This document shows, piece by piece, positions 1,560-62,900 of a DNA stretch of 64,000 nt. Made by a program: the position numbers and the translations under genes. The notes beneath the pieces were generated by a model that saw only the letters and a program-made list of their open reading frames with translations, had not been told where the DNA came from and searched no databases. Numbering within the stretch: the stretch's first letter is position 1; each line of letters starts with the position of its first letter. This DNA comes from Globodera rostochiensis (Eukaryota > Nematoda > Chromadorea > Rhabditida > Heteroderidae), in the NCBI GenBank assembly GCA_018350325.1, contig JAEVLN010000025.1, positions 248,001 through 312,000 of the forward strand, written 5' to 3'.

Positions 1560-1668
1560 TCAAATCGAACGAAAAATCCGAGAAAAATTTTGTCCGGCAA
1601 CCATTCCCTGAAGAGTTACAGACCCGGGACTGAAGTGTCTTTTGACTGGAGACTCAGTTGCCCACTAA
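1560..1668 (-). repeat. dispersed repeat family A, minus orientation
   Basis: Contains gggactgaagtgtcttttg followed by ggagactcagttg. The same segment recurs near 3760-3810 (plus), 52785-52820 (plus), 53338-53380 (plus) and 59310-59355 (minus), often next to 'ggcaaccattccct' or 'cataacttgcttcaaagtgg'. It is a short interspersed repeat of unknown class. Confidence 0.6.
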
Positions 1669-1717
1669 TTAAAAAATGGAGAAAATCAGGCCTGCGCACG
1701 GTTGGCTCCTGTACCTT

Positions 1718-1786
1718 TCAACACTGGACATTTCAACACTGGACATTTCAACACTGATTTCAACACTGGACATTTCAACACTGATT
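1718..1786. repeat. minisatellite of 'ttcaacactggacat'
   Basis: Four to five copies of a 15-bp unit (caacactggacattt, some shortened to caacactgatttt). The inverted counterpart lies at 3537-3594. The pair flanks everything between, as terminal inverted arrays. Confidence 0.65.
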
Positions 1787-2644
1787 TTAAATTTTAAAAA
1801 TAAATTGATAGTGCCAAATTCAAAAATACCTAGTTATAATTAAATAAAGGCTTATTAATTAATCAGTCTTGCTGAGCTAAATGATACGAAATCGTTCTAA
1901 GTAACGAAGTGCGTCTTCGCCAGCCCTCTGGTCAAATTCTGCAAAAATCTGCTGAAGATTATGGTCCAGCGCCACATAAACGCTCTTCCTTTTTAGTCCT
2001 CTCCCTCTCACGCCATGCGCTGGTGCATTTCGATAATCCGTGACAATGATTTCCCAGTGATGAAACTCTTTCACCATTTGACTGACAAATTTGCTAAATA
2101 GCGGCTTAGGATCAAGGAGAGAGCCCCAAATTAGATGCCAGCCTTCCAAAGAATTGTTGCTTCTTGAAAGCCCTTCCTGAAGACGTTCAGTAACATTCCA
2201 GAACTAAGGGAACAATTGATTCAAACTCAATATAACAATTTTCAATGCCTCAATTGGAAACAAGGCATTGCGATGTTGCAAATTTTCGTGCTCAATCCAT
2301 GCACGAAGCCAACCATCACATCCATTCCCATACACTCCTCCCTGCTCGCCAGGAAAAATTTGCGGGTGAGCGACAACATATGACGGGCCGATGTATGTCA
2401 AAACAAAATATTTTAACAACTCTTAATGTAACGCTGATCACTATCAAAAAATTAAGCTAACCCAAAATTTCCATTACAATAACAAGGACCATTTAAATAT
2501 TTTCGAATTTCTCAAATTTCTTATCACATAGCATTTAGCTCAGCAAGACTGATTAATTAATAAGCCTTTATTTAATTATAACTAGGTATTTTTGAATTTG
2601 GCACTATCAATTTATTTTTAAAATTTAAAATCAGTGTTGAAATG
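1771..2644. mobile_element. 874-bp Mutator-like element with 113-bp terminal inverted repeats
   Basis: Positions 1771-1883 are the near-perfect reverse complement of 2532-2644 (from catttcaacactga inward to ctgagctaaatg). Between them is a minus-strand open region encoding a Mutator-like transposase C-terminus. Long inverted repeats plus this transposase signature fit a small, probably non-autonomous MULE. I could not define a clean 8-11 bp target duplication because the ends merge with the surrounding minisatellite. Confidence 0.65.
1877..2419 (-). pseudogene. Mutator-like transposase C-terminal fragment
   Basis: Two open stretches, about 2419-2204 and 2186-1877, lie in one frame separated by a single TAG, or joined by an intron (donor gtgtatggg, acceptor ttcccttag). 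The diagnostic segment reads WNVTERLQEGLSR then SNNSLEGWH. This corresponds to the WN-x-R-x-GLPRTNN-x-EGWH block that ends MULE transposases. YFVLTYIG upstream also fits that family. The catalytic DDE region is missing, so this is a remnant carried between inverted repeats. I am confident of the family and unsure whether any product is made. Confidence 0.6.
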
Positions 2645-2649
2645 TCCGC

Positions 2650-3535
2650 TGCTATACAACTCGCCTATGTAACACTTCGCCTACGTAACATTTCGCCTAC
2701 GCAACATTTCGCCTACAAAGCCAAAAGGCAACATTTCGCCTACAAGGTTTAAATGTTACAACTCGCCTATGTAACATTTCGCCTACCCAGCCAAAAAGCA
2801 ACATTTCGCCTACAAATTTTAAAATTTCGATTTTTAACATTTCCTTAGACAAATTGAAGGCGTATTTGGTAGATTAAGTCAGATCGAGGGCAAAAGCATT
2901 GTATAAATCCATTCTCGTTCTAAAAAGCTGGGTCTGAAAAGGAAGATCCAAGAAGGGAAAAGCCAAACGCAAAGCCTCAACAATTCGAGCAAGCAAAGAA
3001 GGACGTCACCTGCGAGGTTTTTGTGGAGATGGGGTGCCAATGCGTTTGACCCCCTCTGCAAATCAAAGAGGAGGGGCCGATCCTTTGAACAATTCTGGCA
3101 ATTAATTCGAGTGTTTGCACAAGTTTTTCCTTTGTTTTAGGGAGTCTAGTTTCAAATTCAACCGGGCACTCATAACGTCTACGTTTTTTGACTACAACTA
3201 CTCAATTCAAGTTGGGTTTCCTTCGCCAAGACCGCATTTGTTGTCAATGGAATGAGTTAATAAAATTTGAAGCTTTTATGCCTTCGCAATCGTTTGTCAA
3301 AGAAAAATTTTTTAAAAATCGAATTTTTAAAATTTGTAGGCGAAATGTTACTTTTTGACTGGGTAGGCGAAATGTAACATTTTAACCTTGTAGGCGAAAT
3401 GTTGCCTATTGGCTGTGTAGGCGAAATGTAAATAGGCGAAATGTTGCGTAGGCGAAGTGTTGCTTTTTGGCTTTGTAGGCGAAATGTTGCCTTTTGGCTG
3501 TGTAGGCGAAATGTTACATAGGCGAGTTGTAGTGG
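2650..3535. mobile_element. element bounded by inverted 'gcctacgtaacatttc' arrays
   Basis: Positions 2655-2830 hold repeated tcgcctac-g/a-aacatt units; 3330-3535 hold the inverse (gtaggcgaaatgtt), with shared spacers such as 'ttttggctttgtaggcg'. The roughly 500 bp between them has no recognisable gene. The structure parallels the neighbouring MULE, and both sit inside the 'caacactggacattt' arrays, giving nested inverted arrays from 1718 to 3594. Confidence 0.5.
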
Positions 3536-3536
3536 C

Positions 3537-3594
3537 GCCGAAATGTCCAGTGTTGAAATCAGTGTTGAAATGTCCAGTGTTGAAATGTCGGGTC
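3537..3594. repeat. inverted right copy of the 'aatgtccagtgttga' minisatellite
   Basis: About four units of gaaatgtccagtgtt, the reverse complement of the 1718-1786 array. It closes the nested structure. Confidence 0.6.
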
Positions 3595-3712
3595 ACCCGC
3601 ACGGTTACCCGTAACCGCGGTTATCAACCGTTATGGAATTTTAAAAGGTCGCGGTTAACGGTTATGACTAGGGTTGTCACCCCGACCCAGACCCCCGACC
3701 CTGCAAAGCAAT
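3595..3712 (+). repeat. truncated hAT-like end (ggttaacggttatg) abutting a TAGGGTTGTC element end
   Basis: The sequence acggttacccgtaaccgcgg through ggttaacggttatga matches the left end of the complete element at 55535. It is broken at 3672 by ACTAGGGTTGTC, the terminus of the short elements at 20299 and 37907. Both are partial copies. Confidence 0.5.
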
Positions 3713-3744
3713 GCGTTTTTATTTAAATCATTGAGTGTCTTTAT

Positions 3745-3900
3745 GTATTTTTCAGGCGTTGGACAACTGAGTCTCCACTGGAAAAGACACTTCAGTCCCG
3801 GCTCATAACTTGCTTCAAAGTGGTTTGCACAGAAAAATTTTCAAATTTGTAGTTAAAGTGGAGTCGAATGGTATATGATTTGTCGATTTTGAGCAACTTA
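3745..3900 (+). repeat. dispersed repeat family A, plus orientation
   Basis: Contains ggacaactgagtctccac and aagacacttcagtcccgg, then cataacttgcttcaaagtgg. It matches 53335-53470 over more than 100 bases. Nothing coding is seen from 3900 to 4015. Confidence 0.6.
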
Positions 3901-6900
3901 CGTAACTCAATTTTAGCCCCACAAACTTCTAGTGAATATTCCATAATTTATTAACCAAAAAAAGCAAAAAGTTCACTTTCTTGTTCAATGATAATCATGT
4001 ATCAACTCGTTAAATCCGTGACCAAAGTGAGCTCATATGTAGTCTAATCACATTGTTGTATTCAAAGTTCGTTCCAAAGTATGCTACGATTTGTTGCCAG
4101 GATCTGGTGGCGTAACGCATGGAAACAAATCGGCGGCATATGTAGTCTAATCACGAAGTTGCCATACTGATTCGTGACCAAAGTGAGCTCATATGTAGTC
4201 TAATCACGTAGTTGCCATACTGATTCGTGACCAAAGTATGCTACGGTTTGTCGCCAGGGTCTGACGGCGAAATGCATGGAAACAAATCGGCGGCAGAAGC
4301 GACAAACAAACCGGTAGTTTCTGCAAAATTAAACAAATATTTAATTAAGTAAAAAATAATTTTTACGAATTTAGTGTCATTTCATAAACAATGAATGCCT
4401 TTTATATTCTTTTTCTTTCTCACCCAAACGCTTTCCGTCCTTTGTGTAAATGATTTGGCGAGTTGCCAAATTGACGCCGGACTCATTCATCGGGAACCCC
4501 ATGCTTAATCACATGTCGGATCACGTAGTTGCCACCGGTCCCTGGGTCGTCCATGTTCAATCATATGCGAGATCACGTAGTTGCCATGCTGATCCGTGAC
4601 CAAAGTGAGCTCATATGTAGTCTAATCACGAAGTTGCCATACTGATTCGTGACCAAAGTGAGCTCATATGTAGTCTAATCACGTTGTTGTATTCAAAGTC
4701 CGGCCCAAAGTTGGCTACAATTTTGTCGCCAGGGTCTGACGGCGAAACGCATGGAAACAAATCGGCTGAAGCGACAAACAAACCGGTAGTTTCTGCAAAA
4801 TTAAACAAATATTTAATTAAGTAAAAAATTATTTTTAGAAATTTAGTGTCATTTCATAAACAATAAATTGCCCTTTAATTTAATTCTTTTTCTTTCTCAC
4901 CCAAACGCTTTCCGTCCTTTGTGTAAATAATTTGGCGAGTTGCCAAATTGACGCCGCACTCAGTCCTCGGGAACCCCATGCTCAATCTCATGTCGGACCA
5001 CGTAGTTGCCACCGGTCGCCGGGTCGTCCATGCATAATAATATACCAGATCACGTAGTTGCCATGCTGATCCGTGACCAAGTTGAGCTCATATGTAGTCT
5101 AATCACGTAGTTGCCATACTGATCCCACATATGTAGTCTAATCACGTTGTTGTATTCAAAGTTCGTTCCAAAGTATGCTACGATTTGTTGCCAGGATCTG
5201 GTGGCGTAACGCATGGAAACAAATCGGTGGCATATGTAGTCTAATCACGAAGTTGCAGATACTGATTCGTGACCAAAGTATGCTACGGTTTGTCGCCAGG
5301 GTCTGACGGCGAAATGCATGGAAACAAATCGGCGGCAGAAGCGACAAACAAACCGGTAGTTTCTGCAAAATTAAACAAATATTTAATTAAGTAAAAAATT
5401 ATTTTTACAAATTTAGTGTCATTTCATAAACAATGAATTGCCCTTTAATTTTATTCTTTTTCTTTCTCACCCAAACGCTTTCCGTCCTTTGTGTAAATGA
5501 TTTGGCGAGTTGCCAAATTGACGCCGGACTCATTCATCGGGAACCCCATACTTAATCACATGTCGGATCACGTAGTTGCCACCGGTCCCTGGGTCGTCCA
5601 TGTTCAATCATATGCGAGATCACGTAGTTGCCATGCTGATCCGTGACCAAAGAGAGCTCATATGTAGTCTAATCACGTAGTTGCCATACTGATCCCACAT
5701 ATGTAGTCTAATCACGTTGTTGTATTCAAAGTTCGTTCCAAAGTATGCTACGATTTGTTGCCAGGATCTGGTGCCGTAACGCATGGAAACAAATCGGCGG
5801 CATATGTAGTCTAATCACGAAGTTGCCATACTGATTCGTGACCAAGTTGAGCTCATATGTAGTCTAATCACGTAGTTGCCATACTGATTCGTGACCAGCT
5901 CATATGTAGTCTAATACGTAGTTGTATTCAAAGTTCGTTCTAAAGTATGCTACGATTTGTCGCCAGGGACTGACAGCGAAACGCATGGAAACAAATCGGC
6001 TGTATATGTAGTCTAATCACGTAGTTGCCATACTGATTCGTGACCAGCTCATATGTAGTCTAATCACGTAGTTGCCATACTGATTCGTGACCAAAGTATG
6101 CTACGGTTTGAATTTTGTCGCCAGGGTCTGACGGCGAAATGCATGGAAACAAATCGGCGGCAGAAGCGACAAATAAACCGGTAGTTTCTGCAAAATTAAA
6201 CAAATATTTAATTAAGTAAAAAATAATTTTTACGAATTTAGTGTCATTTCATAAACAATGAATGCCTTTTATATTCTTTTTCTTTCTCACCCAAACGCTT
6301 TCCGTCCTTTGTGTAAATGATTTGGCGAGTTGCCAAATTGACGCCGGACTCATTCATCGGGAACCCCATGCTTAATCACATGTCGGATCACGTAGTTGCC
6401 ACCGGTCCCTGGGTCGTCCATGTTCAATCATATGCGAGATCACGTAGTTGCCATGCTGATCCGTGACCAAAGAGAGCTCATATGTAGTCTACTCACGTAG
6501 TTGCCATACTGATCCCACATATGTAGTCTAATCACGTTGTTGTATTCAAAGTTCGTTCCAAAGTATGCTACGATTTGTTGCCAGGATCTGGTGGCGTAAC
6601 GCATGGAAACAAATCGGCGGCATATGTAGTCTAATCACGAAGTTGCCATACTGATTCGTGACCAAGTTGAGCTCATATGTAGTCTAATCACGTAGTTGCC
6701 ATACTGATTCGTGACCAAGTTGAGCTCATATGTAGTCTAATCACGTAGTTGCCATACTGATTCGTGACCAGCTCATATGTAGTCTAATACGTAGTTGTAT
6801 TCAAAGTTCGTTCTAAAGTATGCTACGATTTGTCGCCAGGGTCTGACAGCGAACCGCATGGAAACAAATCGGCTGCATATGTAGTCTAATCACGTAGTTG

Positions 6901-9900
6901 CCATACTGATCCCACATATGTAGTCTAATCACGTTGTTGTATTCAAAGTTCGTTCCAAAGTATGCTACGATTTGTTGCCAGGATCTGGTGGCGTAACGCA
7001 TGAAAACAAATCGGCGGCATATGTAGTCTAATCACGAAGTTGCCATACTGATTCGTGACCAAAGTGAGCTCATATGTAGTCTAATCACGTAGTTGCCATA
7101 CTGATTCGTGACCATAGTATGCTACGGTTTGTCGCCAGGGTCTGACGGCGAAATGCATAGGAAACAAATCGGCGGCAGAAGCGACAAACAAACCGGTAGT
7201 TTCTGCAAAATTAAACAAATATTTAATTAAGTAAAAAATAATTTTTACGAATTTAGTGTCATTTCATAAACAATGAATGCCTTTTATATTCTTTTTCTTT
7301 CTCACCCAAACGCTTTCCGTCCTTTGTGTAAATGATTTGGCGAGTTGCCAAATTGACGCCGGACTCATTCATCGGGAACCCCATGCTTAATCACATGTCG
7401 GATCACGTAGTTGCCACCGGTCCCTGGGTCGTCCATGTTCAATCATATGCGAGATCACGTAGTTGCCATGCTGATCCGTGACCAAAGTGAGCTCATATGT
7501 AGTCTAATCACGTAGTTGCCATACTGATCCGTGACCAAAGTGAGCTCATATGTAGTCTAATCACGAAGTTGCCATACTGATTCGTGACCAAAGTGAGCTC
7601 ATATGTAGTCTAATCACGTTGTTGTATTCAAAGTCCGGCCCAAAGTTGGCTACAATTTTGTCGCCAGGGTCTGACGGCGAAACGCATGGAAACAAATCGG
7701 CGGCAGAAGCGACAAACAAACCGGTAGTTTCTGCAAAATTAAACAAATATTTAATTAAGTAAAAAATTATTTTTAGAAATTTAGTGTCATTTCATAAACA
7801 ATGAATTGCCCTTTAATTTTATTCTTTTTCTTTCTCACCCAAACGCTTTCCGTCCTTTGTGTAAATAATTTGGCGAGTTGCCAAATTGACGCCGCACTCA
7901 GTCCTCGGGAACCCCATGCTCAATCACATGTCGGACCACGTAGTTGCCACCGGTCGCCGGGTCGTCCATGCATAATAATATACCAGATCACGTAGTTGCC
8001 ATGCTGATCCGTGACCAAGTTGAGCTCATATGTAGTCTAATCACGTAGTTGCCATACTGATCCCACATATGTAGTCTAATCACGTTGTTGTATTCAAAGT
8101 TCGTTCCAAAGTATGCTACGATTTGTTGCCAGGATCTGGTGGCGTAACGCATGGAAACAAATCGGCGGCATATGTAGTCTAATCACGAAGTTGCAGATAC
8201 TGATTCGTGACCAAAGTATGCTACGGTTTGTCGCCAGGGTCTGACGGCGAAATGCATGGAAACAAATCGGCGGCAGAAGCGACAAACAAACCGGTAGTTT
8301 CTGCAAAATTAAACAAATATTTAATTAAGTAAAAAATTATTTTTACAAATTTAGTGTCATTTCATAAACAATGAATTGCCCTTTAATTTTATTCTTTTTC
8401 TTTCTCACCCAAACGCTTTCCGTCCTTTGTGTAAATAATTTGGCGAGTTGCCAAATTGACGCCGCACTCAGTCCTCGGGAACCCCATGCTCAATCACATG
8501 TCGGATCACGTAGTTGCCACCGGTCCCTGGGTCGTCCATGCTCAATCATATGCGAGATCACGTAGTTGCCATGCTGATCCGTGACCAAAGTGAGCACATA
8601 TGTAGTCTAATCACGAAGTTGCCATACTGATTCGTGACCAAAGTGAGCTCATATGTAGTCTAATCACGTTGTTGTATTCAAAGTCCGGCCCAAAGTTGGC
8701 TACAATTTTGTCGCCAGGGTCTGACGGCGAAACGCATGGAAACAATCGGCGGCAGAAGCGACAAACAAACCGGTAGTTTCTGCAAAATTAAACAAATATT
8801 TAATTAAGTAAAAAATAATTTTTACGAATTTAGTGTCATTTCATAAACAATGAATGCCCTTTATATTCTTTTTCTTTCTCACCCAAACGCTTTCCGTCCT
8901 TTGTGTAAATGATTTGGCGAGTTGCCAAATTGACGCCGGACTCATTCATCGGGAACCCCATGCTTAATCACATGTCGGATCACTTAGTTGCCACCGGTCC
9001 CTGGGTCGTCCATGTTCAATCATATGCGAGATCACGTAGTTGCCATGCTGATCCGTGACCAAAGTGAGCTCGTATGTAGTCTAATCACGTAGTTGCCATA
9101 CTGATCCCTCATATGTAGTCTAATCACGTTGTTGTATTCAAAGTCCGGCCCAAAGTTGGCTACAATTTTGTCGCCAGGGTCTGACGGCGAAACGCATGGA
9201 AACAAATCGGCGGCAGAAGCGACAAACAAACCGGTAGTTTCTGCAAAATTAAACAAATATTTAATTAAGTAAAAAATTATTTTTAGAAATTTAGTGTCAT
9301 TTCATAAACAATGAATTGCCCTTTAATTTTATTCTTTTTCTTTCTCACCCAAACGCTTTCCGTCCTTTGTGTAAATAATTTGGCGAGTTGCCAAATTGAC
9401 GCCGCACTCAGTCCTCGGGAACCCCATGCTCAATCACATGTCGGACCACGTAGTTGCCACCGGTCGCCGGGTCGTCCATGCATAATAATATACCAGATCA
9501 CGTAGTTGCCATGCTGATCCGTGACCAAGTTGAGCTCATATGTAGTCTAATCACGTAGTTGCCATACTGATCCCACATATGTAGTCTAATCACGTTGTTG
9601 TATTCAAAGTTCGTTCCAAAGTATGCTACGATTTGTTGCCAGGATCTGGTGGCGTAACGCATGGAAACAAATCGGCGGCATATGTAGTCTAATCACGAAG
9701 TTGCAGATACTGATTCGTGACCAAAGTATGCTACGGTTTGTCGCCAGGGTCTGACGGCGAAATGCATGGAAACAAATCGGCGGCAGAAGCGACAAACAAA
9801 CCGGTAGTTTCTGCAAAATTAAACAAATATTTAATTAAGTAAAAAATTATTTACAAATTTAGTGTCATTTCATAAACTGCCCTTTAATTTTATTCTTTTT

Positions 9901-9909
9901 CTTTCTCAC

Positions 9910-10126
9910 CCAAACGCTTTCCGTCCTTTGTGTAAATGATTTGGCGAGTTGCCAAATTGACGCCGAACTCAGTCCTGGGAACCCTATGCTCAATCACATG
10001 TCGGATCATGTAGTTGCCACCGGTCGTTGGTCGTCCATGCTCAATCATATGCGAGATCACGTAGTTGCCATGCTGATCCGTGACCAAAGTGAGCACATAC
10101 GTTGTTGTATTCAAAGTCCGGCCCAA
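9910..10126 (-). pseudogene. array monomer with PUF x2 fused in frame to SPRY exon
   Basis: Small deletions in this copy restore one open frame: [18 protein letters not shown], a second unit GNYMIRHVIEHRVPRTEF, then [18 protein letters not shown] and a gtgaga donor. This is the one place where I see PUF and SPRY coding joined without a stop. The next exon downstream (acceptor near 9814) would add ETTGLFVASAADLFPC and then a stop. No start codon or promoter is evident. Confidence 0.5.
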
Positions 10127-12203
10127 AGTTGGCTACAATTTTGTCGCCAGGGTCTGACGGCGAAACGCATGGAAACAAATCGGCGGCAGAAGCGACAAAA
10201 CAAACCGGTAGTTTCTGCAAAATTAAACAAATATTTAATTAAGTAAAAAATAATTTTTACGAATTTAGTGTCATTTCATAAACAATGAATGCCCTTTATA
10301 TTCTTTTTCTTTCTCACCCAAACGCTTTCCGTCCTTTGTGTAAATGATTTGGCGAGTTGCCAAATTGACGCCGGACTCATTCATCGGGAACCCCATGCTT
10401 AATCACATGTCGGATCACTTAGTTGCCACCGGTCCCTGGGTCGTCCATGTTCAATCATATGCGAGATCACGTAGTTGCCATGCTGATCCGTGACCAAAGT
10501 GAGCTCGCATGTAGTCTAATCACGTAGTTGCCATACTGATCCGTGACCAAAGTGAGCTCATATGTAGTCTAATCACGAAGTTGCCATACTGATTCGTGAC
10601 CAAAGTGAGCTCATATGTAGTCTAATCACGTTGTTGTATTCAAAGTCCGGCCCAAAGTTGGCTACAATTTTGTCGCCAGGGTCTGACGGCGAAACGCATG
10701 GAAACAAATCGGCGGCAGAAGCGACAAACAAACCGGTAGTTTCTGCAAAATTAAACAAATATTTAATTAAGTAAAAAATTATTTTTAGAAATTTAGTGTC
10801 ATTTCATAAACAATGAATTGCCCTTTAATTTTATTCTTTTTCTTTCTCACCCAAACGCTTTCCGTCCTTTGTGTAAATAATTTGGCGAGTTGCCAAATTG
10901 ACGCCGCACTCAGTCCTCGGGAACCCCATGCTCAATCACATGTCGGACCACGTAGTTGCCACCGGTCGCCGGGTCGTCCATGCATAATAATATACCAGAT
11001 CACGTAGTTGCCATGCTGATCCGTGACCAAGTTGAGCTCATATGTAGTCTAATCACGTAGTTGCCATACTGATCCCACATATGTAGTCTAATCACGTTGT
11101 TGTATTCAAAGTTCGTTCCAAAGTATGCTACGATTTGTTGCCAGGATCTGGTGGCGTAACGCATGGAAACAAATCGGCGGCATATGTAGTCTAATCACGA
11201 AGTTGCAGATACTGATTCGTGACCAAAGTATGCTACGGTTTGTCGCCAGGGTCTGACGGCGAAATGCATGGAAACAAATCGGCGGCAGAAGCGACAAACA
11301 AACCGGTAGTTTCTGCAAAATTAAACAAATATTTAATTAAGTAAAAAATTATTTTACAAATTTAGTGTCATTTCATAAACAATGAATTGCCCTTTAATTT
11401 TATTCTTTTTCTTTCTCACCCAAACGCTTTCCGTCCTTTGTGTAAATAATTTGGCGAGTTGCCAAATTGACGCCGCACTCAGTCCTCGGGAACCCCATGC
11501 TCAATCACATGTCGGATCACGTAGTTGCCACCGGTCCCTGGGTCGTCCATGCTCAATCATATGCGAGATCACGTAGTTGCCATGCTGATCCGTGACCAAA
11601 GTGAGCACATATGTAGTCTAATCACGAAGTTGCCATACTGATTCGTGACCAAAGTGAGCTCATATGTAGTCTAATCACGTTGTTGTATTCAAAGTCCGGC
11701 CCAAAGTTGGCTACAATTTTGTCGCCAGGGTCTGACGGCGAAACGCATGGAAACAAATCGGCGGCAGAAGCGACAAACAAACCGGTAGTTTCTGCAAAAT
11801 TAAACAAATATTTAATTAAGTAAAAAATAATTTTTACGAATTTAGTGTCATTTCATAAACAATGAATGCCTTTTATATTCTTTTTCTTTCTCACCCAAAC
11901 GCTTTCCGTCCTTTGTGTAAATGATTTGGCGAGTTGCCAAATTGACGCCGGACTCATTCATCGGGAACCCCATGCTTAATCACATGTCGGATCACTTAGT
12001 TGCCACCGGTCCCTGGGTCGTCCATGTTCAATCATATGCGAGATCACGTAGTTGCCATGCTGATCCGTGACCAAAGTGAGCTCGCATGTAGTCTAATCAC
12101 GTAGTTGCCATACTGATCCGTGACCAAAGTGAGCTCATATGTAGTCTAATCACGAAGTTGCCATACTGATTCGTGACCAAAGTGAGCTCATATGTAGTCT
12201 AAT

Positions 12204-12482
12204 CACGTTGTTGTATTCAAAGTCCGGCCCAAAGTTGGCTACAATTTTGTCGCCAGGGTCTGACGGCGAAACGCATGGAAACAAATCGGCGGCAGAAGCG
12301 ACAAACAAACCGGTAGTTTCTGCAAAATTAAACAAATATTTAATTAAGTAAAAAATTATTTTTAGAAATTTAGTGTCATTTCATAAACAATGAATTGCCC
12401 TTTAATTTTATTCTTTTTCTTTCTCACCCAAACGCTTTCCGTCCTTTGTGTAAATAATTTGGCGAGTTGCCAAATTGACGCC
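12204..12482 (-). pseudogene. representative array monomer: SPRY exon pair
   Basis: Exon I is 12482-12428 ([18 protein letters not shown], phase 1). The intron is 12427-12320, and exon II is 12319-12204 (ETTGLFVASAADLFPCV, then [19 protein letters not shown]). Compared with the complete SPRY gene at 26911-27504, exon I starts in mid-domain, with upstream SPRY replaced by PUF sequence. Exon II runs into [14 protein letters not shown] and a stop, which is PUF sequence read out of frame. Intact splice sites with broken frames mark it as gene-derived satellite rather than a working gene. Confidence 0.7.
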
Positions 12483-15400
12483 GCACTCAGTCCTCGGGAA
12501 CCCCATGCTCAATCACATGTCGGACCACGTAGTTGCCACCGGTCGCCGGGTCGTCCATGCATAATAATATACCAGATCACGTAGTTGCCATGCTGATCCG
12601 TGACCAAGTTGAGCTCATATGTAGTCTAATCACGTAGTTGCCATACTGATCCCACATATGTAGTCTAATCACGTTGTTGTATTCAAAGTTCGTTCCAAAG
12701 TATGCTACGATTTGTTGCCAGGATCTGGTGGCGTAACGCATGGAAACAAATCGGCGGCATATGTAGTCTAATCACGAAGTTGCAGATACTGATTCGTGAC
12801 CAAAGTATGCTACGGTTTGTCGCCAGGGTCTGACGGCGAAATGCATGGAAACAAATCGGCGGCAGAAGCGACAAACAAACCGGTAGTTTCTGCAAAATTA
12901 AACAAATATTTAATTAAGTAAAAAATTATTTTTACAAATTTAGTGTCATTTCATAAACAATGAATTGCCCTTTAATTTTATTCTTTTTCTTTCTCACCCA
13001 AACGCTTTCCGTCCTTTGTGTAAATAATTTGGCGAGTTGCCAAATTGACGCCGCACTCAGTCCTCGGGAACCCCATGCTCAATCACATGTCGGATCACGT
13101 AGTTGCCACCGGTCCCTGGGTCGTCCATGCTCAATCATATGCGAGATCACGTAGTTGCCATGCTGATCCGTGACCAAAGTGAGCACATATGTAGTCTAAT
13201 CACGAAGTTGCCATACTGATTCGTGACCAAAGTGAGCTCATATGTAGTCTAATCACGTTGTTGTATTCAAAGTCCGGCCCAAAGTTGGCTACAATTTTGT
13301 CGCCAGGGTCTGACGGCGAAACGCATGGAAACAAATCGGCGGCAGAAGCGACAAACAAACCGGTAGTTTCTGCAAAATTAAACAAATATTTAATTAAGTA
13401 AAAAATAATTTTTACGAATTTAGTGTCATTTCATAAACAATGAATGCCCTTTATATTCTTTTTCTTTCTCACCCAAACGCTTTCCGTCCTTTGTGTAAAT
13501 GATTTGGCGAGTTGCCAAATTGACGCCGGACTCATTCATCGGGAACCCCATGCTTAATCACATGTCGGATCACTTAGTTGCCACCGGTCCCTGGGTCGTC
13601 CATGTTCAATCATATGCGAGATCACGTAGTTGCCATGCTGATCCGTGACCAAAGTGAGCTCGTATGTAGTCTAATCACGTAGTTGCCATACTGATCCGTG
13701 ACCAAAGTGAGCTCATATGTAGTCTAATCACGAAGTTGCCATACTGATTCGTGACCAAAGTGAGCTCATATGTAGTCTAATCACGTTGTTGTATTCAAAG
13801 TCCGGCCCAAAGTTGGCTACAATTTTGTCGCCAGGGTCTGACGGCGAAACGCATGGAAACAAATCGGCGGCAGAAGCGACAAACAAACCGGTAGTTTCTG
13901 CAAAATTAAACAAATATTTAATTAAGTAAAAAATTATTTTTAGAAATTTAGTGTCATTTCATAAACAATGAATTGCCCTTTAATTTTATTCTTTTTCTTT
14001 CTCACCCAAACGCTTTCCGTCCTTTGTGTAAATAATTTGGCGAGTTGCCAAATTGACGCCGCACTCAGTCCTCGGGAACCCCATGCTCAATCACATGTCG
14101 GACCACGTAGTTGCCACCGGTCGCCGGGTCGTCCATGCATAATAATATACCAGATCACGTAGTTGCCATGCTGATCCGTGACCAAGTTGAGCTCATATGT
14201 AGTCTAATCACGTAGTTGCCATACTGATCCCACATATGTAGTCTAATCACGTTGTTGTATTCAAAGTTCGTTCCAAAGTATGCTACGATTTGTTGCCAGG
14301 ATCTGGTGGCGTAACGCATGGAAACAAATCGGCGGCATATGTAGTCTAATCACGAAGTTGCAGATACTGATTCGTGACCAAAGTATGCTACGGTTTGTCG
14401 CCAGGGTCTGACGGCGAAATGCATGGAAACAAATCGGCGGCAGAAGCGACAAACAAACCGGTAGTTTCTGCAAAATTAAACAAATATTTAATTAAGTAAA
14501 AAATTATTTACAAATTTAGTGTCATTTCATAAACTGCCCTTTAATTTTATTCTTTTTCTTTCTCACCCAAACGCTTTCCGTCCTTTGTGTAAATGATTTG
14601 GCGAGTTGCCAAATTGACGCCGAACTCAGTCCTGGGAACCCTATGCTCAATCACATGTCGGATCATGTAGTTGCCACCGGTCGTTGGGTCGTCCATGCAT
14701 AATAATATACCAGATCACGTAGTTGCCATGCTGATCCGTGACCAAAGTGAGCACATACGTTGTTGTATTCAAAGTTCGTTCCAAAGTATGCTACGGTTTG
14801 TCGCCAGGGTCTGACGGCGAAACGCATGGAAACAAATCGGCGGCAGAAGCGACAAACAAACCGGTAGTTTCTGCAAAATTAAACAAATATTTAATTAAGT
14901 AAAAAATAATTTTTACGAATTTAGTGTCATTTCATAAACAATGAATGCCCTTTATATTTGTTTTCTTTCTCACCCAAACGCTTTCCGTCCTTTGTGTAAA
15001 TGATTTGGCGAGTTGCCAAATTGACGCCGGACTCATTCATCGGGAACCCCATGCTTAATCACATGTCGGATCACGTAGTTGCCACCGGTCCCTGGGTCGT
15101 CCATGCTCAATCATATGCGAGATCACGTAGTTGCCATGCTGATCCGTGACCAAAGTGAGCTCATATGTAGTCTAATCACGTTGTTGTATTCAAAGTTCGT
15201 TCCAAAGTATGCTACGATTTGTCGCCAGGATCTGGTAGCGTAACGCATGAAAACAAATCGGCGACATATGTAGTCTAATCACGTAGTTGCCATACTGATC
15301 CGTGACCAAAGTGAGCACATATGTAGTCTAATCACGTTGTTGTATTGAAAGTTCGTTCCAAAGTATGCTACGATTTGTTGCCAGGGTCTGACGTCGAAAC

Positions 15401-18400
15401 GCATGGAAACAAATCGGCGGCATATGTAGTCTAATCACCAAGTTGCCATGCTGATCCGTGACCAAAGTGAGCTCATATGTAGCCTAATCACGTAGCTGCC
15501 ATACTAATCCGTGACCAAAGTGAGCTCATATGTAGTATAATCACGTAGTTGCCATACTGATTCGTGACCAAAGTATGCTACGGTTTGTCGCCAGGGTCTG
15601 ACGGCGAAATGCATGGAAACAAATCGGCGGCAGAAGCGACAAACAAACCGGTAGTTTCTGCAAAATTAAACAAATATTTAATTAAGTAAAAAATAATTTT
15701 TACGAATTTAGTGTCATTTCATAAACAATGAATGCCCTTTATATTCTTTTTCTTTCTCACCCAAACGCTTTCCGTCCTTTGTGTAATGATTTGGCGAGTT
15801 GCCAAATTGACGCCGGACTCATTCATCGGGAACCCCATACTTAATCACATGTCGGATCACGTAGTTGCCACCGGTCCCTGGGTCGTCCATGCTCAATCAT
15901 ATGCGAGATCACGTAGTTGCCATGCTGATCCGTGACCAAAGTGAGCACATACGTTGTTGTATTCAAAGTTCGTTCCAAGTATGCTACGGTTTGTCGCCAG
16001 GGTCTGACGGCGAAACGCATGGAAACAAATCGGCGGCAGAAGCGACAAACAAACCGGTAGTTTCTGCAAAATTAAACAAATATTTAATTAAGTAAAAAAT
16101 TATTTTTACAAATTTAGTGTCATTTCATAAACAATGAATTGCCCTTTAATTTTATTCTTTTTCTTTCTCACCCAAACGCTTTCCGTCCTTTGTGTAAATA
16201 ATTTGGCGAGTTGCCAAATTGACGCCGCACTCAGTCCTCGGGAACCCCATGCTCAATCACATGTCGGATCACGTAGTTGCCACCGGTCCCTGGGTCGTCC
16301 ATGCTCAATCATATGCGAGATCACGTAGTTGCCATGCTGATCCGTGACCAAAGTGAGCACATATGTAGTCTAATCACGAAGTTGCCATACTGATTCGTGA
16401 CCAAAGTGAGCTCATATGTAGTCTAATCACGTTGTTGTATTCAAAGTCCGGCCCAAAGTTGGCTACAATTTTGTCGCCAGGGTCTGACGGCGAAACGCAT
16501 GGAAACAAATCGGCGGCAGAAGCGACAAACAAACCGGTAGTTTCTGCAAAATTAAACAAATATTTAATTAAGTAAAAAATTATTTTTAGAAATTTAGTGT
16601 CATTTCATAAACAATGAATTGCTCTTTAATTTTATTCTTTTTCTTTCTCACCCAAACGCTTTCCGTCCTTTGTGTAAATAATTTGGCGAGTTGCCAAATT
16701 GACGCCGCACTCATTCATCGGGAACCCCATGCTTAATCACATGTCGGATCACGTAGTTGCCACCGGTCCCTGGGTCGTCCATGTTCAATCATATGCGAGA
16801 TCACGTAGTTGCCATGCTGATCCGTGACCAAAGTGAGCTCGTATGTAGTCTAATCACGTAGTTGCCATACTGATCCGTGACCAAAGTGAGCTCATATGTA
16901 GTCTAATCACGAAGTTGCCATACTGATTCGTGACCAAAGTGAGCTCATATGTAGTCTAATCACGTTGTTGTATTCAAAGTCCGGCCCAAAGTTGGCTACA
17001 ATTTTGTCGCCAGGGTCTGACGGCGAAACGCATGGAAACAAATCGGCGGCAGAAGCGACAAACAAACCGGTAGTTTCTGCAAAATTAAACAAATATTTAA
17101 TTAAGTAAAAAATTATTTTTAGAAATTTAGTGTCATTTCATAAACAATGAATTGCCCTTTAATTTTATTCTTTTTCTTTCTCACCCAAACGCTTTCCGTC
17201 CTTTGTGTAAATAATTTGGCGAGTTGCCAAATTGACGCCGCACTCAGTCCTCGGGAACCCCATGCTCAATCACATGTCGGACCACGTAGTTGCCACCGGT
17301 CGCCGGGTCGTCCATGCATAATAATATACCAGATCACGTAATTGCCATGCTGATCCGTGACCAAGTTGAGCTCATATGTAGTCTAATCACGTAGTTGCCA
17401 TACTGATCCCACATATGTAGTCTAATCACGTTGTTGTATTCAAAGTTCGTTCCAAAGTATGCTACGATTTGTTGCCAGGATCTGGTGGCGTAACGCATGG
17501 AAACAAATCGGCGGCATATGTAGTCTAATCACGAAGTTGCAGATACTGATTCGTGACCAAAGTATGCTACGGTTTGTCGCCAGGGTCTGACGGCGAAATG
17601 CATGGAAACAAATCGGCGGCAGAAGCGACAAACAAACCGGTAGTTTCTGCAAAATTAAACAAATATTTAATTAAGTAAAAAATTATTTACAAATTTAGTG
17701 TCATTTCATAAACTGCCCTTTAATTTTATTCTTTTTCTTTCTCACCCAAACGCTTTCCGTCCTTTGTGTAAATGATTTGGCGAGTTGCCAAATTGACGCC
17801 GAACTCAGTCCTGGGAACCCTATGCTCAATCACATGTCGGATCATGTAGTTGCCACCGGTCGTTGGGTCGTCCATGCATAATAATATACCAGATCACGTA
17901 GTTGCCATGCTGATCCGTGACCAAAGTGAGCACATATTGTTGTATTCAAAGTTCGTTCCAAAGTATGCTACGGTTTGTCGCCAGGGTCTGACGGCGAAAC
18001 GCATGGAAACAAATCGGCGGCAGAAGCGACAAACAAACCGGTAGTTTCTGCAAAATTAAACAAATATTTAATTAAGTAAAAAATTATTTTTACAAATTTA
18101 GTGTCATTTCATAAACAATGAATTGCTCTTTAATTTTATTCTTTTTCTTTCTCACCCAAACGCTTTCCGTCCTTTGTGTATATAATTTGGCGAGTTGCCA
18201 AATTGACGCCGCACTCAGTCCTCGGGAACCCCATGCTCAATCACATGTCGGATCACGTAGTTGCCATGCTGATCCGCGACCAAAGTGAGCTCATACGTTG
18301 TTGTATTCAAAGTTCGTTCCAAAGTATGCTACGATTTGTTGCTAGGATCTGGTGGCGTAACGCATGAAAACAAATCGGCGGCATATGTAGTCTAATCACG

Positions 18401-20298
18401 TAGTTGCCATACTGATCCGTGACCAAAGTGAGCTCATATGTAGTCTAATCACGTAGTTGCCATACTGATTCGTGACCAAAGTATGCTACGGTTTGTCGCC
18501 AGGGTCTGACGGCGAAATGCATGGAAACAAATCGGCGGCAGAAGCAACAAACAAACCGGTAGTTTCTGCAAAATTAAACAAATATTTAATTAAGTAAAAA
18601 ATAATTTTTACGAATTTAGTGTCATTTCATAAACAATGAATGCCCTTTATATTTGTTTTCTTTCTCACCCAAACGCTTTCCGTCCTTTGTGTAAATGATT
18701 TGGCGAGTTGCCAAATTGACGCCGGACTCATTCATCGGGAACCCCATGCTTAATCACATGTCGGATCACGTAGTTGCCACCGGTCCCTGGGTCGTCCATG
18801 CTCAATCATATGCGAGATCACGTAGTTGCCATGCTGATCCGTGACCAAAGTGAGCTCATATGTAGTCTAATCACGTTGTTGTATTCAAAGTTCGTTCCAA
18901 AGTATGCTACGATTTGTCGCCAGGATCTGGTAGCGTAACGCATGAAAACAAATCGGCGACATATGTAGTCTAATCACGTAGTTGCCATACTGATCCGTGA
19001 CCAAAGTGAGCACATATGTAGTCTAATCACGTTGTTGTATTGAAAGTTCGTTCCAAAGTATGCTACGATTTGTTGCCAGGGTCTGACGTCGAAACGCATG
19101 GAAACAAATCGGCGGCATATGTAGTCTAATCACGAAGTTGCCATGCTGATCCGTGACCAAAGTGAGCTCATATGTAGCCTAATCACGTAGCTGCCATACT
19201 AATCCGTGACCAAAGTGAGCTCATATGTAGTCTAATCACGTAGTTGCCATACTGATTCGTGACCAAAGTATGCTACGGTTTGTCGCCAGGGTCTGACTGC
19301 GAAATGCATGGAAACAAATCGGCGGCAGAAGCGACAAACAAACCGGTAGTTTCTGCAAAATTAAACAAATATTTAATTAAGTAAAAAATAATTTTTACGA
19401 ATTTAGTGTCATTTCATAAACAATGAATGCCCTTTATATTCTTTTTCTTTCTCACCCAAACGCTTTCCGTCCTTTGTGTAAATGATTTGGCGAGTTGCCA
19501 AATTGACGCCGGACTCATTCATCGGGAACCCCATGCTTAATCACATGTCGGATCACGTAGTTGCCACCGGTCCCTGGGTCGTCCATGTTCAATCATATGC
19601 GAGATCACGTAGTTGCCATGCTGATCCGTGACCAAAGTGAGCTCATATGTAGTCTAATCACGTAGTTGCCATACTGATCCGTGACCAAAGTGAGCTCATA
19701 TGTAGTCTAATCACGAAGTTGCCATACTGATTCGTGACCAAAGTGAGCTCATATGTAGTCTAATCACGTTGTTGTATTCAAAGTCCTGCCCAAAGTTGGC
19801 TACAATTTTGTCGCCAGGGTCTGACGGCGAAACGCATGGAAACAAATCGGCGACATATGTAGTCTAATCACGTAGTTGCCATACTGATCCGTGACCAAAG
19901 TGAGCACATATGTAATCTAATCGCGTTGTTGTATTCAAAGTTCGTTCCAGCTACGATTTGTTGCCAGGGTCTGACGTCGAAACGCATGGAAACAAATCGG
20001 CGGCAGAAGCGACAAACAAACCGGTAGTTTCTGCAAAATTAAACAAATATTAATTAAGTAAAAAATTATTTTTACTAATTTAATGTCATTTCATAAACAA
20101 TGAATTGCCCTTTAATTTTATTCTTTTTCTTTCTCACCCAAACGATTAGATCAAAACGCCGGAGTAACATGCAAGGGGCAAGGGGGCCCAATTGTTACCC
20201 GAATAAAAAGAAAAATGGTAAATTTGCTCCAGTTGTAGGGAGTAGGTTACGTTTTGTTCCCACCGTTTTTTTCCCCAAAAATATTGCCATACTTGTAC

Positions 20299-24860: not shown

Positions 24861-25114
24861 ATTTTCATTAAGTACTATTTTGTCGACGGTTTCCAAATTT
24901 GAACCGGTCCAAATCCGGTTTAAATGCTCGTCCCAATAACATTTTTGATTGCTCTATCGATGTATAACTTTGACAACCTTCGCATGAGCGGACAAGAAAA
25001 TTTATCCAAAAACAAAGAATAAAGAGAGAAAATAATGTTTTGATCGGTGCAAAAATAATAAAACCATGGTCATATCCCTTCAAAGAAGGAAAAAGTAATA
25101 AATTTAATCATTTT

Positions 25115-26095: not shown

Positions 26096-27504
26096 ACGAA
26101 TGAATTGGTCGTCAGAAAGCTTGAACAGATGGAGGAATGGAGAAGAGTTGCAAAACTCGAGCTTGAAAATGTGAATATATTTATTAACAAACCAATCTCT
26201 TGCTATTTGTTCAGAAAGCACTCCATGTCGAGTCTGAACGCCAGAAGGAGTATCAGAAACAGCAGAAGCTGAACATCGATGCAAAGATGGAGGAGTATCA
26301 GAAACAACAGAAGCTGAACATCGATGCAAAGATGGAGGAGTATCAGAAACAACAGAAGCTGAACATCGATGCAAAGATGGATGAGTATCAGAAACAACAG
26401 AAGCTGAACATCGATGCAAAGATGGATGAGTATCAGAAACAACAGAAGCTGAACATCGATGCAAAGATGGAGGAGTATCAGAAACAACTGCGATTGAGCA
26501 TCGATGCAAACATGGAGGTGTATCTGAGTGAACACCGACTGAACATCGATGCGTTGACTGAAGACCAAAGGGGATATGGTAGGGGAATTGTTATTTGATG
26601 CTTTTTGTAAAATTGGTTTCATATTTCTTTGAAAATAATACAGTCAATTAATTGTCCAACATAATGGAAAGCATTTGGGTAAATATTTTGAATAAAAAAA
26701 TGTAAAAAGTGTTCATTTCAGTGGGGGGTCATTCTGTTTTCGCTGAAGAGCCAATTCCAAGAATTCATTGCGGCATTTTTTATTATGAAGTGACCATCTT
26801 TGTGAAAAGAAGGTAGGTGAGACGTATAAATTTTCTAAAACGATTTGTTTTGTTTTTGAGCTTTGAAATGCTTTAGAAGCATATTTAGAATTAAAACAAT
26901 TATATTTTAGTTATATTTCCATTGGATTCGCGTCAAAACAAATGCCATTGAACGGATGGGTTGGCGATTTTGAAGGCACTTTTGCATACGAAAGCGATGG
27001 CCGATTTTGGGGTCACGGATCTTCCGGCGGCAGCAATGGACGTCCTTTCAGTGGTGGAATGCCGTCGTTTGGCGTCGGCGACGTCATCGGTTGTGGCGTC
27101 AATTTGGCAACTCGCCAAATCATTTATACGAAGAACGGACGGCGTTTGGGTAAGAAATGAATAGAGCCCGGAATTTTGAAGAAAAAAACCTGGACCTGGA
27201 TTTTGGAAATGGCCTTGATCTGGATTTAACTGGATTGAAAATCCAGGGTTTTCAGGATGTCCCCAGATCTGGAGTGTTCCGGCGAAAATACCTGGATTTG
27301 GAGTCCAGGAAAATCCAGGTCCTATCCGGGGGCTCTAGAATTTGTAAATTATTTTAGGGTTTTTTGTGTTATTTGTTTGTTTTTGCAGAAACTACCGGTT
27401 CGTTTGTCTCTTTTGCCACCGATTTGTTTCCATGCGTTTCATTGTTAAACCCTGGCGACAAAATTGAAGCCAACTTTGGGCCGGACTTTGAATATATATT
27501 CTGA
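26090..27504 (+). CDS. coiled-coil plus SPRY protein (SPRYSEC-like)
   Basis: Exons 26090?-26170, 26215-26578, 26644-26678, 26722-26812, 26911-27149 and 27389-27504. The N-terminal helix includes [17 protein letters not shown]; then five to six copies of a 15-residue unit ([15 protein letters not shown]) form a charged coiled coil. The SPRY domain follows: [78 protein letters not shown] and NFGPDFEY, ending IF-stop. Phases agree from the third listed exon to the stop; the join between the coil exon and 26644 does not fit as drawn, so an exon or acceptor is misplaced or damaged there. No signal peptide is visible because the true start is not found. The family mediates protein binding, and secreted members act as effectors in plants. 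This gene's exons match those in the 4-20 kb array. Confidence 0.7.
27162..27337. mobile_element. 176-bp MITE in last SPRY intron (TAGAGCCCGG ends)
   Basis: Ends TAGAGCCCGG and CCGGGGGCTCTA. The interior consists of inverted 'cctggacctggatt/aatccaggt' repeats. The ends match the larger element at 41729-42575. No convincing 8-bp duplication is visible. It begins just after the donor gtaagaaatg without destroying it. Confidence 0.6.
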
Positions 27505-52275: not shown

Positions 52276-52329
52276 TAAACATTTTGGTTGCAAATCTCAA
52301 CAAATTTTCGGAAATTTTCTTTTTTTTTA

Positions 52330-59983: not shown

Positions 59984-62900
59984 ACCGGCCCAGCCAGCGT
60001 TCCAAGCTGTTGAACGATTTCCACAACAAACGTACAGCCAACCTCCAACTCAACGATTTGGGTAAACACGTCGTGGAGTTTGCGCTGGACCCGCAAGGTT
60101 CAAGGTGGGAAGAATTGCTGGGGGGGGGGAGACCAAGTTTTGGTGAACGATTTGAACAGCCTGGACTTCCCATGACGTCTAATTTTTTTTGAATCAGACA
60201 AATTTAATATCACTCAAAAGCTCGATGAATTTTCATAAGCTGAGCGATTGAACAAAATACTAAATAGTCATAGCATGAAACGGCCGTTTTTTTTTTCATT
60301 TTTCTTGTTATAGGTGGCTTTAAGAAACTGACCAATCGATGTGCCCAGCCATAAAGGCATTAGTGTTGAGTAGAGTAGGCCGGGACCGGGATTGAGAAAA
60401 TTAAAAACCCGGGATTTTATAAGGGGGAAATTCAGTCCCAAGATTGGAGACTTCAGTACCAGTCCCGGTCTCGGCCTAATCCCTGTGGCCAAAAAACTCA
60501 AATCGTTTATTTCCTAAGCTCGGGGTCGGTAATTTCCCAAACTCGGGTCGACGAATAAGCCAAATGAACGGAAAAAGATGGAAACAATGAAATGCTTTAT
60601 TGGAAACGTCGAGTCAGAAACGATCGGTGCGGTTATGGAAAATGTTGAGTCAAAAGGGTGGTTCCGATTGGTGGTTTAGGGAAAAGGTTGAGTCAGAAAG
60701 TGGTTCGGTTCGGTGGTTTGTTGAGAGTCGTTTTTGCCGTTGCAAATGTGGAAAAAGTGAGAGAGGGTCCTTGGCACATCCTTTCTTTTATACGGGCTTG
60801 GGCGGGGCAGGGGCCCTGGGCAGGGCAACAGACGGGCCGGTGGAGGGGAGGACCCCATTCGATGGGCGGAGGAGAGTCGTGGCATTGGCAAAACATCCCT
60901 CGATTAGATCAGCACACCATATCGTCGAGACGAGCACTTTCTGTGGGATTAAGGAAAAAAAAAGGGAAACGGGGAAGTGGGACGAGCCCAGATTAATGAA
61001 TTGTATATGAGAAATAAGACATTATTCCCGTGCCATTAATTTCCAATGGTCCTAATCCTAAAACCCCTTGGTGTTTATTTTGCTTAGAAGAAGGCAAATT
61101 GGTGAAATAATAATGAAAAGCAATTTAAGACAATTTTGTCGAAGACAGCCTACTCTAGTGTTGAGTAAGGCTGTCGGTTTCAAACCGAGGCATTTTTTGG
61201 TTTGCTTAAACGAATAATGTTGGTTCAGTTACCGGTTTTGGTTTGGTTTGGTTATCGGTTCGGAATTAACCAATGTTTATTTTTTGCCTTGCCGAATATT
61301 GGCGTTGACCCCAAAGAAAAGTTGCAGGTTTTGGATCCCCTCAATTTGCGACTGATTGGTTTCGTCAAAACAAATTGCTCACTTCCCAAGAAATCTTTCA
61401 ATCCAAAACTGTCAATCATTTTTATCAAATTGTACCATTTTAGTACAAAAAAACAAATCTATTGATTGATTGATTATATTGTATAATTTGCATTAATCAT
61501 TTTGCCAGGTTCATCCAGCAAAAGTTGGGGCGTGCCAGTCCGACGGAGAAGACTCAGCTGGTGGACGAATTGTGTGGCCACGTGGTGACATTGGCCCAGC
61601 ACATGAACGGCTCTCACGTGATCCAAAAGGCGTTGAAATCGGTGGACAAAACGTCACAAATTGAGGCAAAATCATTAATTTTAAATCGTTTTGTTTAAGC
61701 CGGTTTTTAGACCTTGGTACTAAAGTGCCCCTTTTACCTAGGGACTCAAATGCTTGACTATTTATGTAAAAGTAATTGTTTTAGATAATCAATGAGATAT
61801 TGGCGCAAGTGATTCCCCTGTCCCTCCATGAATACGGTAATTTGGTGATTCGATGTGTGCTTGAACACTGCACGGAGCAGCAAAAGCGTCCCGTGCTGGA
61901 ACAACTGCACGAGAATGTGTCCACTTTGGTCACTGATAAGTACGGCAGCTTCGTGATCCGACACGTGATTGAGCATGGACTTCCCGAAGACCGGGAGCCT
62001 ATTGTGCACATTCTGCAAGAGAATGTGTCCACTTTGGTCACGGATCAGTATGGCAACTACGTGATCCAACACGTGATTGAGCATGGACTGCCCAAAGACC
62101 GGGAGCCTATTGTGCACATTCTGAAGGACGACATTATGAAGTGTGCACAGCACAAGTTCGCCTCCAACGTCATCTTGAAGTGTTTGATCTGCGGGACGGC
62201 GGAGCAGAAAAAGGCGCTGTTCGACAACGTCTGTGGGGGGTGAGTTGCTTTTTGCATTAAATGTGTAAGGGACGTTTTATTTTTAAAGAGGGCTGCAGAC
62301 GCTTCAAAATGTTCGACAATTGATGGCTGACGAATTTGGCAGTCATGTGATTCAGGTCCTTGAAAATTCATTGTGACAAATTAATTAGTTGAAAAGAGGC
62401 AAAAAACTATTTTTGCTCTCTCTTCAAATTTGTCAATTCTTTCCATTTTTAGCCGCAAAACATAATTTAATTACTAAGTAGAAGCCCCTAAAATAGCCCA
62501 AAAAATTGAATGAATAAAAGGGAAATTACCTATTTAGGAAAAAAAATTCAGAAATTTTTCGAATACGGCACGGACGATCAGAAAGCTCAGCTGGTGGACG
62601 CATTGCGTGGCCACGTGTTGACATTGTCCCTGCAAATATACGGCGGTCCTGTGATCCAAACGGCGTTGAAATCGGTGGACAAAGCGTCACAAATTGAGGC
62701 AAAATCATTTTATTTTATTTTTGCTTTTTGGTGGCAATAAATAATGTTTTAAAGATAATCGAAGAATTGACGCCGCGTGCGTGTGTGATTAAGTGCATCA
62801 AAGATCATTATGGAAGCCATGTCATTAACACGGTGAATAACACCAATATACAACAATTATATAAATGTGTTGTTTGAGTCTTAACCGGAGCTCCCGGGTG

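What the first reader, a model, noticed from the sequence alone, without database searches (positions are those of the whole stretch)
4015..20143. A satellite built from two unrelated protein domains: SPRY exons fused to Pumilio repeats
Sequence shows about 29 monomers in which SPRY splice donor, intron, acceptor and C-terminal exon alternate with fragments of a PUF repeat. Monomers are organised in a ~1577-bp higher-order unit of three. The join sits at microhomology (aac-a/t-acgtgatt) shared by the two domains. Most frames are broken, yet SPRY codons and splice sites stay intact. Both parent families are expanded in this window. Either this is a gene-derived satellite of a new kind, or a factory that recombines SPRY and PUF coding blocks.
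Basis: partly seen in the sequence, partly recalled or inferred. Interest (0 to 1): 0.9.

Follow-up and report, generated by a model that had tools for sequence, protein, structure and literature searches.

The report
Satellite made from two gene scraps
In what is likely a cyst-nematode genome, a 16-kb tandem DNA array is built from repeated scraps of two unrelated genes (SPRY and Pumilio), none of its 28 exon-like stretches is open to translation, and it likely grew by copying errors between repeats.

Summary
On the minus strand, window 4014-20143 is a tandem array in which SPRY exon pieces with their intron alternate with pieces of Pumilio (PUF) repeats: 29 GT...AG introns, 28 PUF-to-SPRY joins, 68 copies of a 53-bp PUF piece. 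The 1577-bp three-monomer unit exists but is regular mainly over 10.2-14.5 kb. The joins were found nowhere else in the 92.6-Mb assembly among the best 40 candidates of each of four searches.

The claim of specially preserved SPRY codons and splice sites fails: intron and exon vary alike (10 of 108 versus 10 of 135 columns, p = 0.64), 33 of 47 SPRY exon-2 copies are one base short at the same place, and 0 of 28 acceptor-to-donor stretches are open in any frame. No exported 'factory' product was found.

New context: the PUF pieces match PUF-derived minisatellites at C23, C20 and C9. Best reading: a PUF minisatellite joined a SPRY exon pair, rearranged at short direct repeats (one join lies on a shared 7-bp word) and was amplified by unequal exchange. 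A silencing role is untested.

The parts
4014..20143 (-). Composite SPRY-PUF tandem array, 29 intron-bearing monomers
10194..14516 (-). Most regular stretch of the 1577/1578-bp higher-order unit (monomers of 570, 528 and about 480 bp); coordinates are the matching stretches plus their shifted partner
   Evidence: shift 1577 at 99.2% over 10194-11364 and shift 1578 at 99.4% over 11342-12938
8883..8950 (-). Example of PUF-to-SPRY exon-1 join (J2) followed by the SPRY exon-1 piece up to the donor
   Evidence: 28 J2 joins; in 14 of 16 matches outside the array the similarity begins exactly at the join
8780..8882 (-). Example SPRY intron, 103 bp, GT...AG
   Evidence: 29 introns
8665..8779 (-). Example SPRY exon-2 piece (this copy has a one-base deletion) ending at the SPRY-to-PUF join J1
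   Evidence: 26 exact J1 joins
8206..8224 (-). Example of a second SPRY-to-PUF join (J3) on the shared word ACTTTGG
   Evidence: 12 copies; in 18 J1-type units the word recurs 37, 39 or 52 bp on, so J3 equals a deletion between direct repeats
8158..8174 (-). Example of PUF-to-SPRY exon-2 join without intron (J4)
   Evidence: 19 of 47 exon-2 cores are preceded by the PUF piece; 18 by a stricter pattern
7454..7624 (-). Example run of the 53-bp PUF piece (3.2 copies)
   Evidence: 68 copies in the array
26867..27494 (+). Pieces of a neighbouring SPRY gene; its exon-2 piece (27389-27494) is the best match to exon 2 of two of three array units tested (89.6 and 90.6% over 106 bp)
   Evidence: (PF00622, E 5.3e-10 for the upstream exon)
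61785..62243 (+). Neighbouring PUF gene piece with four PUF repeat matches; 36 bases at 62030-62065 identical to the array
   Evidence: (PF00806, E 4.9e-34)

Best explanation
The array is a tandem repeat made of scraps of a SPRY gene and of Pumilio (PUF) repeats, closed to translation in all 28 of its exon-like stretches, and it likely arose when a PUF-derived minisatellite joined a SPRY exon-intron-exon piece and the joined unit was amplified by unequal exchange. Shown: the composition, the joins, the monomer types, the closed frames, and that related PUF-only minisatellites exist elsewhere in the same genome. Inferred: the order of events. A PUF domain is itself a run of 108-bp coding repeats, so slippage or unequal exchange could break it into 51-53-bp and about 105-bp units; one such minisatellite would have captured SPRY sequence; later joins would have formed inside the array by deletion between direct repeats (ACTTTGG is read within a Y/N-F-G codon run in SPRY and one base out of step, as T-L-V, in PUF, so a crossing through it changes frame); blocks of three monomers were then copied. 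The array is most likely inert, and its intact-looking introns reflect recent copying.
For: Landmark decomposition and intron list. Among the 23 of 29 monomers of 390-620 bp, monomers of one size type are 98-100% alike and of different types 92-99%, with block copies at 1577/1578, 3179 and 3695 bp, as unequal exchange would give. Mean pairwise difference: exon-1 piece 2.7%, intron 2.2%, exon-2 piece 1.3%, PUF piece 8.3%; variable columns intron versus exon p = 0.64. 33 of 47 exon-2 copies one base short; 0 of 28 exon-like stretches open in any frame. Shared word and its spacing. The 53-bp PUF piece matches a 52-bp x 30 array on C23 at 84-90% and the Pa-Pb piece a 51-bp x 11 array on C20 at 78-89%; further PUF arrays on C9 (three) and C23. 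In the four PUF arrays of which DNA was fetched (L054, L055, L056, L063) no SPRY part of two test monomers aligned. SPRY-PUF joins found only here.
Against: No raw reads were available, so copy number and even the array's length rest on one assembly. No single SPRY gene held is the best match to exon 1, intron and exon 2 at once, so the parent is not pinned down. The overlap of about 3 bases at J1 is too short to show microhomology for that join. The exon-2 piece is the least variable part (1.3%), which could be read as constraint, though on 6 variable columns of 71. Each genome search scored only its best 40 candidates (of 92 to 494).
Confidence: 0.75

Rival explanations
1. Silencing array: it is transcribed and feeds RdRP-made small RNAs that would act on SPRY and PUF genes, much as Su(Ste) repeats feed small RNAs against Stellate.
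For: The array shares perfect stretches of 22 bases or more with both neighbouring genes (22-32 bases with SPRY at 27 kb, 36 bases with PUF at 62 kb) and with 19 of 33 further held loci of the two families; the reversed array gave 0 of those 33. Of the 12 of these loci that came from family searches alone 3 match; the other 21 were picked for similarity or place and 16 match. Globodera pallida makes 22-26-nt 5'-triphosphate small RNAs, those matching transposons mostly antisense (PMC4323106, passages). The array is in the opposite orientation to both neighbouring genes.
Against: No transcript or small-RNA data; any gene-derived repeat shares such words with its parents; no promoter was tested.
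Confidence: 0.08
2. Recombination factory or coding reservoir that assembles new SPRY-PUF proteins or feeds sequence back to SPRY genes by gene conversion.
For: GT...AG ends in all 29 introns; in 10 of 28 units examined the SPRY pieces read without stop to the J1 join.
Against: 0 of 28 exon-like stretches open in any frame; no SPRY-PUF join found elsewhere; exon columns vary as often as intron columns; 33 of 47 exon-2 copies one base short. Gene conversion itself was not tested.
Confidence: 0.04
3. Assembly artefact: a short true repeat inflated or scrambled by the assembler.
For: Tandem arrays are error-prone; no reads can be seen here.
Against: The array-side part of each flank has one match only among the scored candidates; monomers differ by scattered substitutions and indels in a consistent type pattern; no N in the window.
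Confidence: 0.08
4. Satellite carried by a transposable element, as reported for oyster arrays in Helentrons.
For: A palindromic repeat element ends at about 3914, some 100 bp before the array, and its end repeat has 40 other scored matches in the genome, among them five inverted pairs 438-513 bp apart (for the window).
Against: The right flank shows no match to it, both inverted ends of the element lie left of the array, and no second locus with the composite was found.
Confidence: 0.05

Closest known systems
Su(Ste)/Stellate repeats of Drosophila (PMC9741089, passages read)
   Same: Chimeric gene-derived tandem array; a non-homologous recombination between gene families preceded the amplification
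   Different: Su(Ste) units carry a transposon that gives a promoter, 627 units were counted, and they make piRNAs against Stellate; here no promoter, RNA or target effect is shown, there are 29 intron units, and coding pieces of two protein domains are joined
Alpha-satellite-like higher-order repeats (recalled)
   Same: Monomers of distinct types recur in a fixed order with near-identical copies of the block
   Different: Here the monomer is made of gene exon pieces, an intron and PUF-repeat pieces; 16 kb, one locus found
PUF-derived minisatellites of the same genome (C23, C20, C9)
   Same: 51-52-bp or about 105-bp units cut from PUF repeats, related in sequence to the PUF pieces of the array
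   Different: No SPRY part aligned in the four of them that were fetched
Satellite-like arrays carried by Helentrons in oyster (PMC7492417, seen only in a search listing)
   Same: Short satellite-like tandem arrays
   Different: Those are dispersed with a mobile element; this composite was found at one locus

Membership tests
Satellite / higher-order tandem repeat | Head-to-tail monomers homogenised within types | tested here: met
Satellite / higher-order tandem repeat | Higher-order block copied as a unit | tested here: met
   1577/1578-bp block at 99% over 10.2-14.5 kb, irregular elsewhere
Satellite / higher-order tandem repeat | Not protein-coding | tested here: met
   0 of 28 exon-like stretches open; longest stop-free run 89 codons on the minus strand, 127 on the plus strand; no expression data
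SPRY gene (SPRYSEC-like or other) | SPRY-coding DNA | tested here: met
   By DNA similarity: 7 of the 16 non-array matches overlap PF00622 matches (150 of 429 candidates scored there); a 35-residue exon-2 piece alone hit no Pfam family
SPRY gene (SPRYSEC-like or other) | Complete open SPRY domain | tested here: not met
   Only the end of exon 1 and an exon-2 piece are present and the stretches are closed
SPRY gene (SPRYSEC-like or other) | Secretion signal | not tested
   No start region is present to test
PUF (Pumilio) gene | Run of intact PUF repeats | tested here: not met
   One 22-residue piece hits PF00806 at E 1.9e-4, 21.5 bits against a cut-off of 26.3; the 53-bp unit is not a multiple of three
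Su(Ste)-type silencing array | Chimeric gene-derived tandem units | tested here: met
Su(Ste)-type silencing array | Small RNAs that repress a gene family | not testable with these tools
   No small-RNA or transcript data; only shared 22-base words counted
Transposon-carried satellite | Array inside element ends, at several loci | tested here: not met

The most novel reading that the evidence does not exclude
PUF repeats are a satellite-generating engine in this genome: coding tandem repeats decay into minisatellites, one of which captured exons and intron of a second gene family and became a two-family array that gives rise to small RNAs coupling the silencing of the SPRY and PUF families.
Probability: 0.06. 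Interest if true: 0.75.

Novelty: new variant of a known kind. Interest (0 to 1): 0.42.

Why it matters
It shows, in one locus with both parent families still present, how coding domains can turn into satellite DNA: a tandem-repeat domain likely supplies the first minisatellite, and a second gene family is pulled in. The PUF-only arrays on other contigs are sister cases in which the steps can be compared. It also warns annotators: intact-looking exons and splice sites in such an array are not evidence of genes, and could inflate counts of SPRY genes.

Tried and rejected
Rejected: preserved SPRY coding; tandem multi-exon gene; factory that exports fusions; origin from one identifiable SPRY parent (the best match differs for exon 1, intron and exon 2, and for one of three units exon 2 is nearest to C7 instead of the window's gene); strong microhomology at J1 (by eye about 3 bases). 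Led nowhere: I had no collection of other nematode assemblies to search, so the join could not be sought in sister species. Paper searches for PUF in cyst nematodes gave nothing on point: one search listed 20 of 113 papers, none of the 20 holding 'pumilio'; one maize paper; one microRNA review; three papers; all seen as listings only. Searches for gene-derived chimeric satellites (8, 7, 0 and 3 papers) gave Su(Ste) as the nearest precedent.

Full report
What is there. The window is G000:C18:248001-312000 of an unnamed 92.6-Mb assembly in 80 contigs. On the minus strand, 4014-20143 is a tandem array. Reading 5' to 3' on that strand, a typical unit holds a SPRY exon-2 piece, a SPRY-to-PUF join, one to several copies of a 53-bp PUF piece, two joined PUF pieces (Pa, Pb), a PUF-to-SPRY join, the end of SPRY exon 1, the donor and an intron. 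A landmark search, keeping matches with at least 60% of the landmark, found 29 acceptors, 28 donors, 28 joins, 28 Pb, 27 Pa, 46 exon-2 cores and 68 copies of the 53-bp piece. Exact strings gave 29 donors and 29 acceptors, pairing as introns of 99, 103, 107 or 108 bp with GT...AG ends. Those strings required conserved ends, so '29 of 29' is partly built in; the landmark counts agree.

Order within the array. Monomers of 570, 528 and about 480 bp recur in that order. In the matrix of the 23 of 29 monomers of 390-620 bp, those of one type are 98-100% alike and those of different types 92-99%. The 1577/1578-bp block is regular over about 10.2-14.5 kb, with a further stretch at 7159-7536; elsewhere shifts of 1502, 1510, 3179, 3695, 820, 787, 533 and 480 bp show other block copies. 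The array-side part of each flank has one match only among the candidates scored (40 of 423 and 40 of 48).

Parents. In a search with a 310-bp stretch across the PUF-to-SPRY join, 29 of 45 matches lie in the array; the 16 others match SPRY only, 14 beginning exactly at the join, one a base later and one seven bases later (40 of 494 candidates scored). Seven of the 16 overlap PF00622 matches (150 of 429 candidates scored). Three array units were compared with 23 held loci and the rest of the window: exon 2 is nearest to the window's own SPRY gene in two units (89.6 and 90.6% over 106 bp) and to C7 in the third; exon 1 is nearest to C47 (94.6% over 56 bp) in two and equally near C23, C20 and C47 (92.9%) in the third; the intron is nearest to C47 (75-78%) in all three. 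So no single parent is identified. A PUF piece of 22 residues hits PF00806 at E 1.9e-4, below the cut-off, and the array shares 36 identical bases with the PUF gene at 62 kb.

Sister arrays. The 53-bp piece matches a 52-bp x 30 array on C23 (84-90%). Pa-Pb matches a 51-bp x 11 array on C20 (78-89%). A 106-bp x 17 array lies on C9 with two similar runs nearby, and PUF matches run in tandem over about 5.7 kb at C23:4519619-4525327 (the C9 runs may be copies of one another). In the four arrays of which DNA was fetched, no SPRY part of two test monomers aligned. So PUF repeats have become minisatellites more than once in this genome, and the composite carries pieces related to two of them.

Joins. 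Four join types were counted: J1 SPRY end to PUF (26 exact), J2 PUF to exon 1 (28), J3 SPRY to PUF on ACTTTGG (12), J4 PUF to exon 2 without intron (19 of 47 exon-2 cores; 18 by a stricter pattern). In 18 J1-type units the word ACTTTGG occurs in the SPRY part and again 37, 39 or 52 bp on in the PUF part, so J3 equals a deletion between direct repeats inside an older unit; that it arose so is inference. At J1 the overlap with SPRY genes is about 3 bases by eye, too few to prove microhomology.

Is it coding? The sequence says no. 0 of 28 acceptor-to-donor stretches are open in any frame; the longest stop-free run is 89 codons on the minus strand, 127 on the plus. Of 47 exon-2 cores, 33 are one base short at the same place, which in the SPRY frame brings up a TAG, 13 are unshifted there and 1 is otherwise altered. 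27 of 28 exon-1 pieces keep their length. Against this, in 10 of 28 units the SPRY pieces read without stop as far as the J1 join. Mean pairwise difference is 2.7% (exon 1), 2.2% (intron), 1.3% (exon 2, first 66 bp) and 8.3% (PUF, 110 bp); variable columns are 10 of 108 in the intron and 10 of 135 in the exon pieces, Fisher p = 0.64. The exon-2 figure is lower than the intron's, against my reading, but on 6 variable columns.

Function. I hold it most likely inert. The rival I take most seriously is a silencing array. The array shares perfect words of 22 bases or more with the neighbouring SPRY and PUF genes and with 19 of 33 further held loci of the two families; the reversed array gave 0 of 33. 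That set is biased: of the 12 loci that came from family searches alone 3 match. Globodera pallida is reported to make RdRP-type small RNAs, those matching transposons mostly antisense, and clade IV to lack PIWI (PMC4323106, passages). No RNA data could be tested.

Known kinds. Su(Ste) is the nearest precedent that I read about (PMC9741089, passages): a chimeric, gene-derived tandem array. This one differs in being made of two protein domains with an intron, and in having no shown role. I file it as a new variant of a known kind.

Noticed in passing
G000 C23:4472941-4474518, C20:548294-548859, C9:1072311-1074376, C9:1079958-1081916, C9:1087496-1088196, C23:4519619-4525327 (L054, L055, L056, L063 in part): PUF-derived tandem arrays with units of 51, 52, about 105 bp or complex; the C20 units are 17 codons long and partly open.
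   Followed up: partly
G000 contigs C18, C23, C28, C80: PUF repeats are numerous: 682 first-look candidates, 150 scored, all but 4 of those on four contigs; no paper on a PUF expansion in cyst nematodes was found.
   Followed up: no
window 1572-3914: Palindromic repeat element with inverted end repeats and tandem-repeat arms (1709-1787 and 2661-2823 against 3333-3589); its end of about 155 bp has 40 other scored matches in the genome, five inverted pairs 438-513 bp apart among them.
   Followed up: partly
window 24974-25321 and 46192-46545: By eye, open frames in opposite orientation that are nearly alike over about 75 residues, beside the SPRY fragments at 25 kb and 45-46 kb; perhaps an inverted segmental duplication.
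   Followed up: no
window 26246-26552: 45-bp x 6.8 tandem repeat in frame within a 136-residue open frame, perhaps coding.
   Followed up: no
window 29737-30403 and 51169-52276: Two other tandem arrays (31 bp x 21.5; 38/78/116 bp), not related to SPRY or PUF by eye, open in several frames.
   Followed up: no
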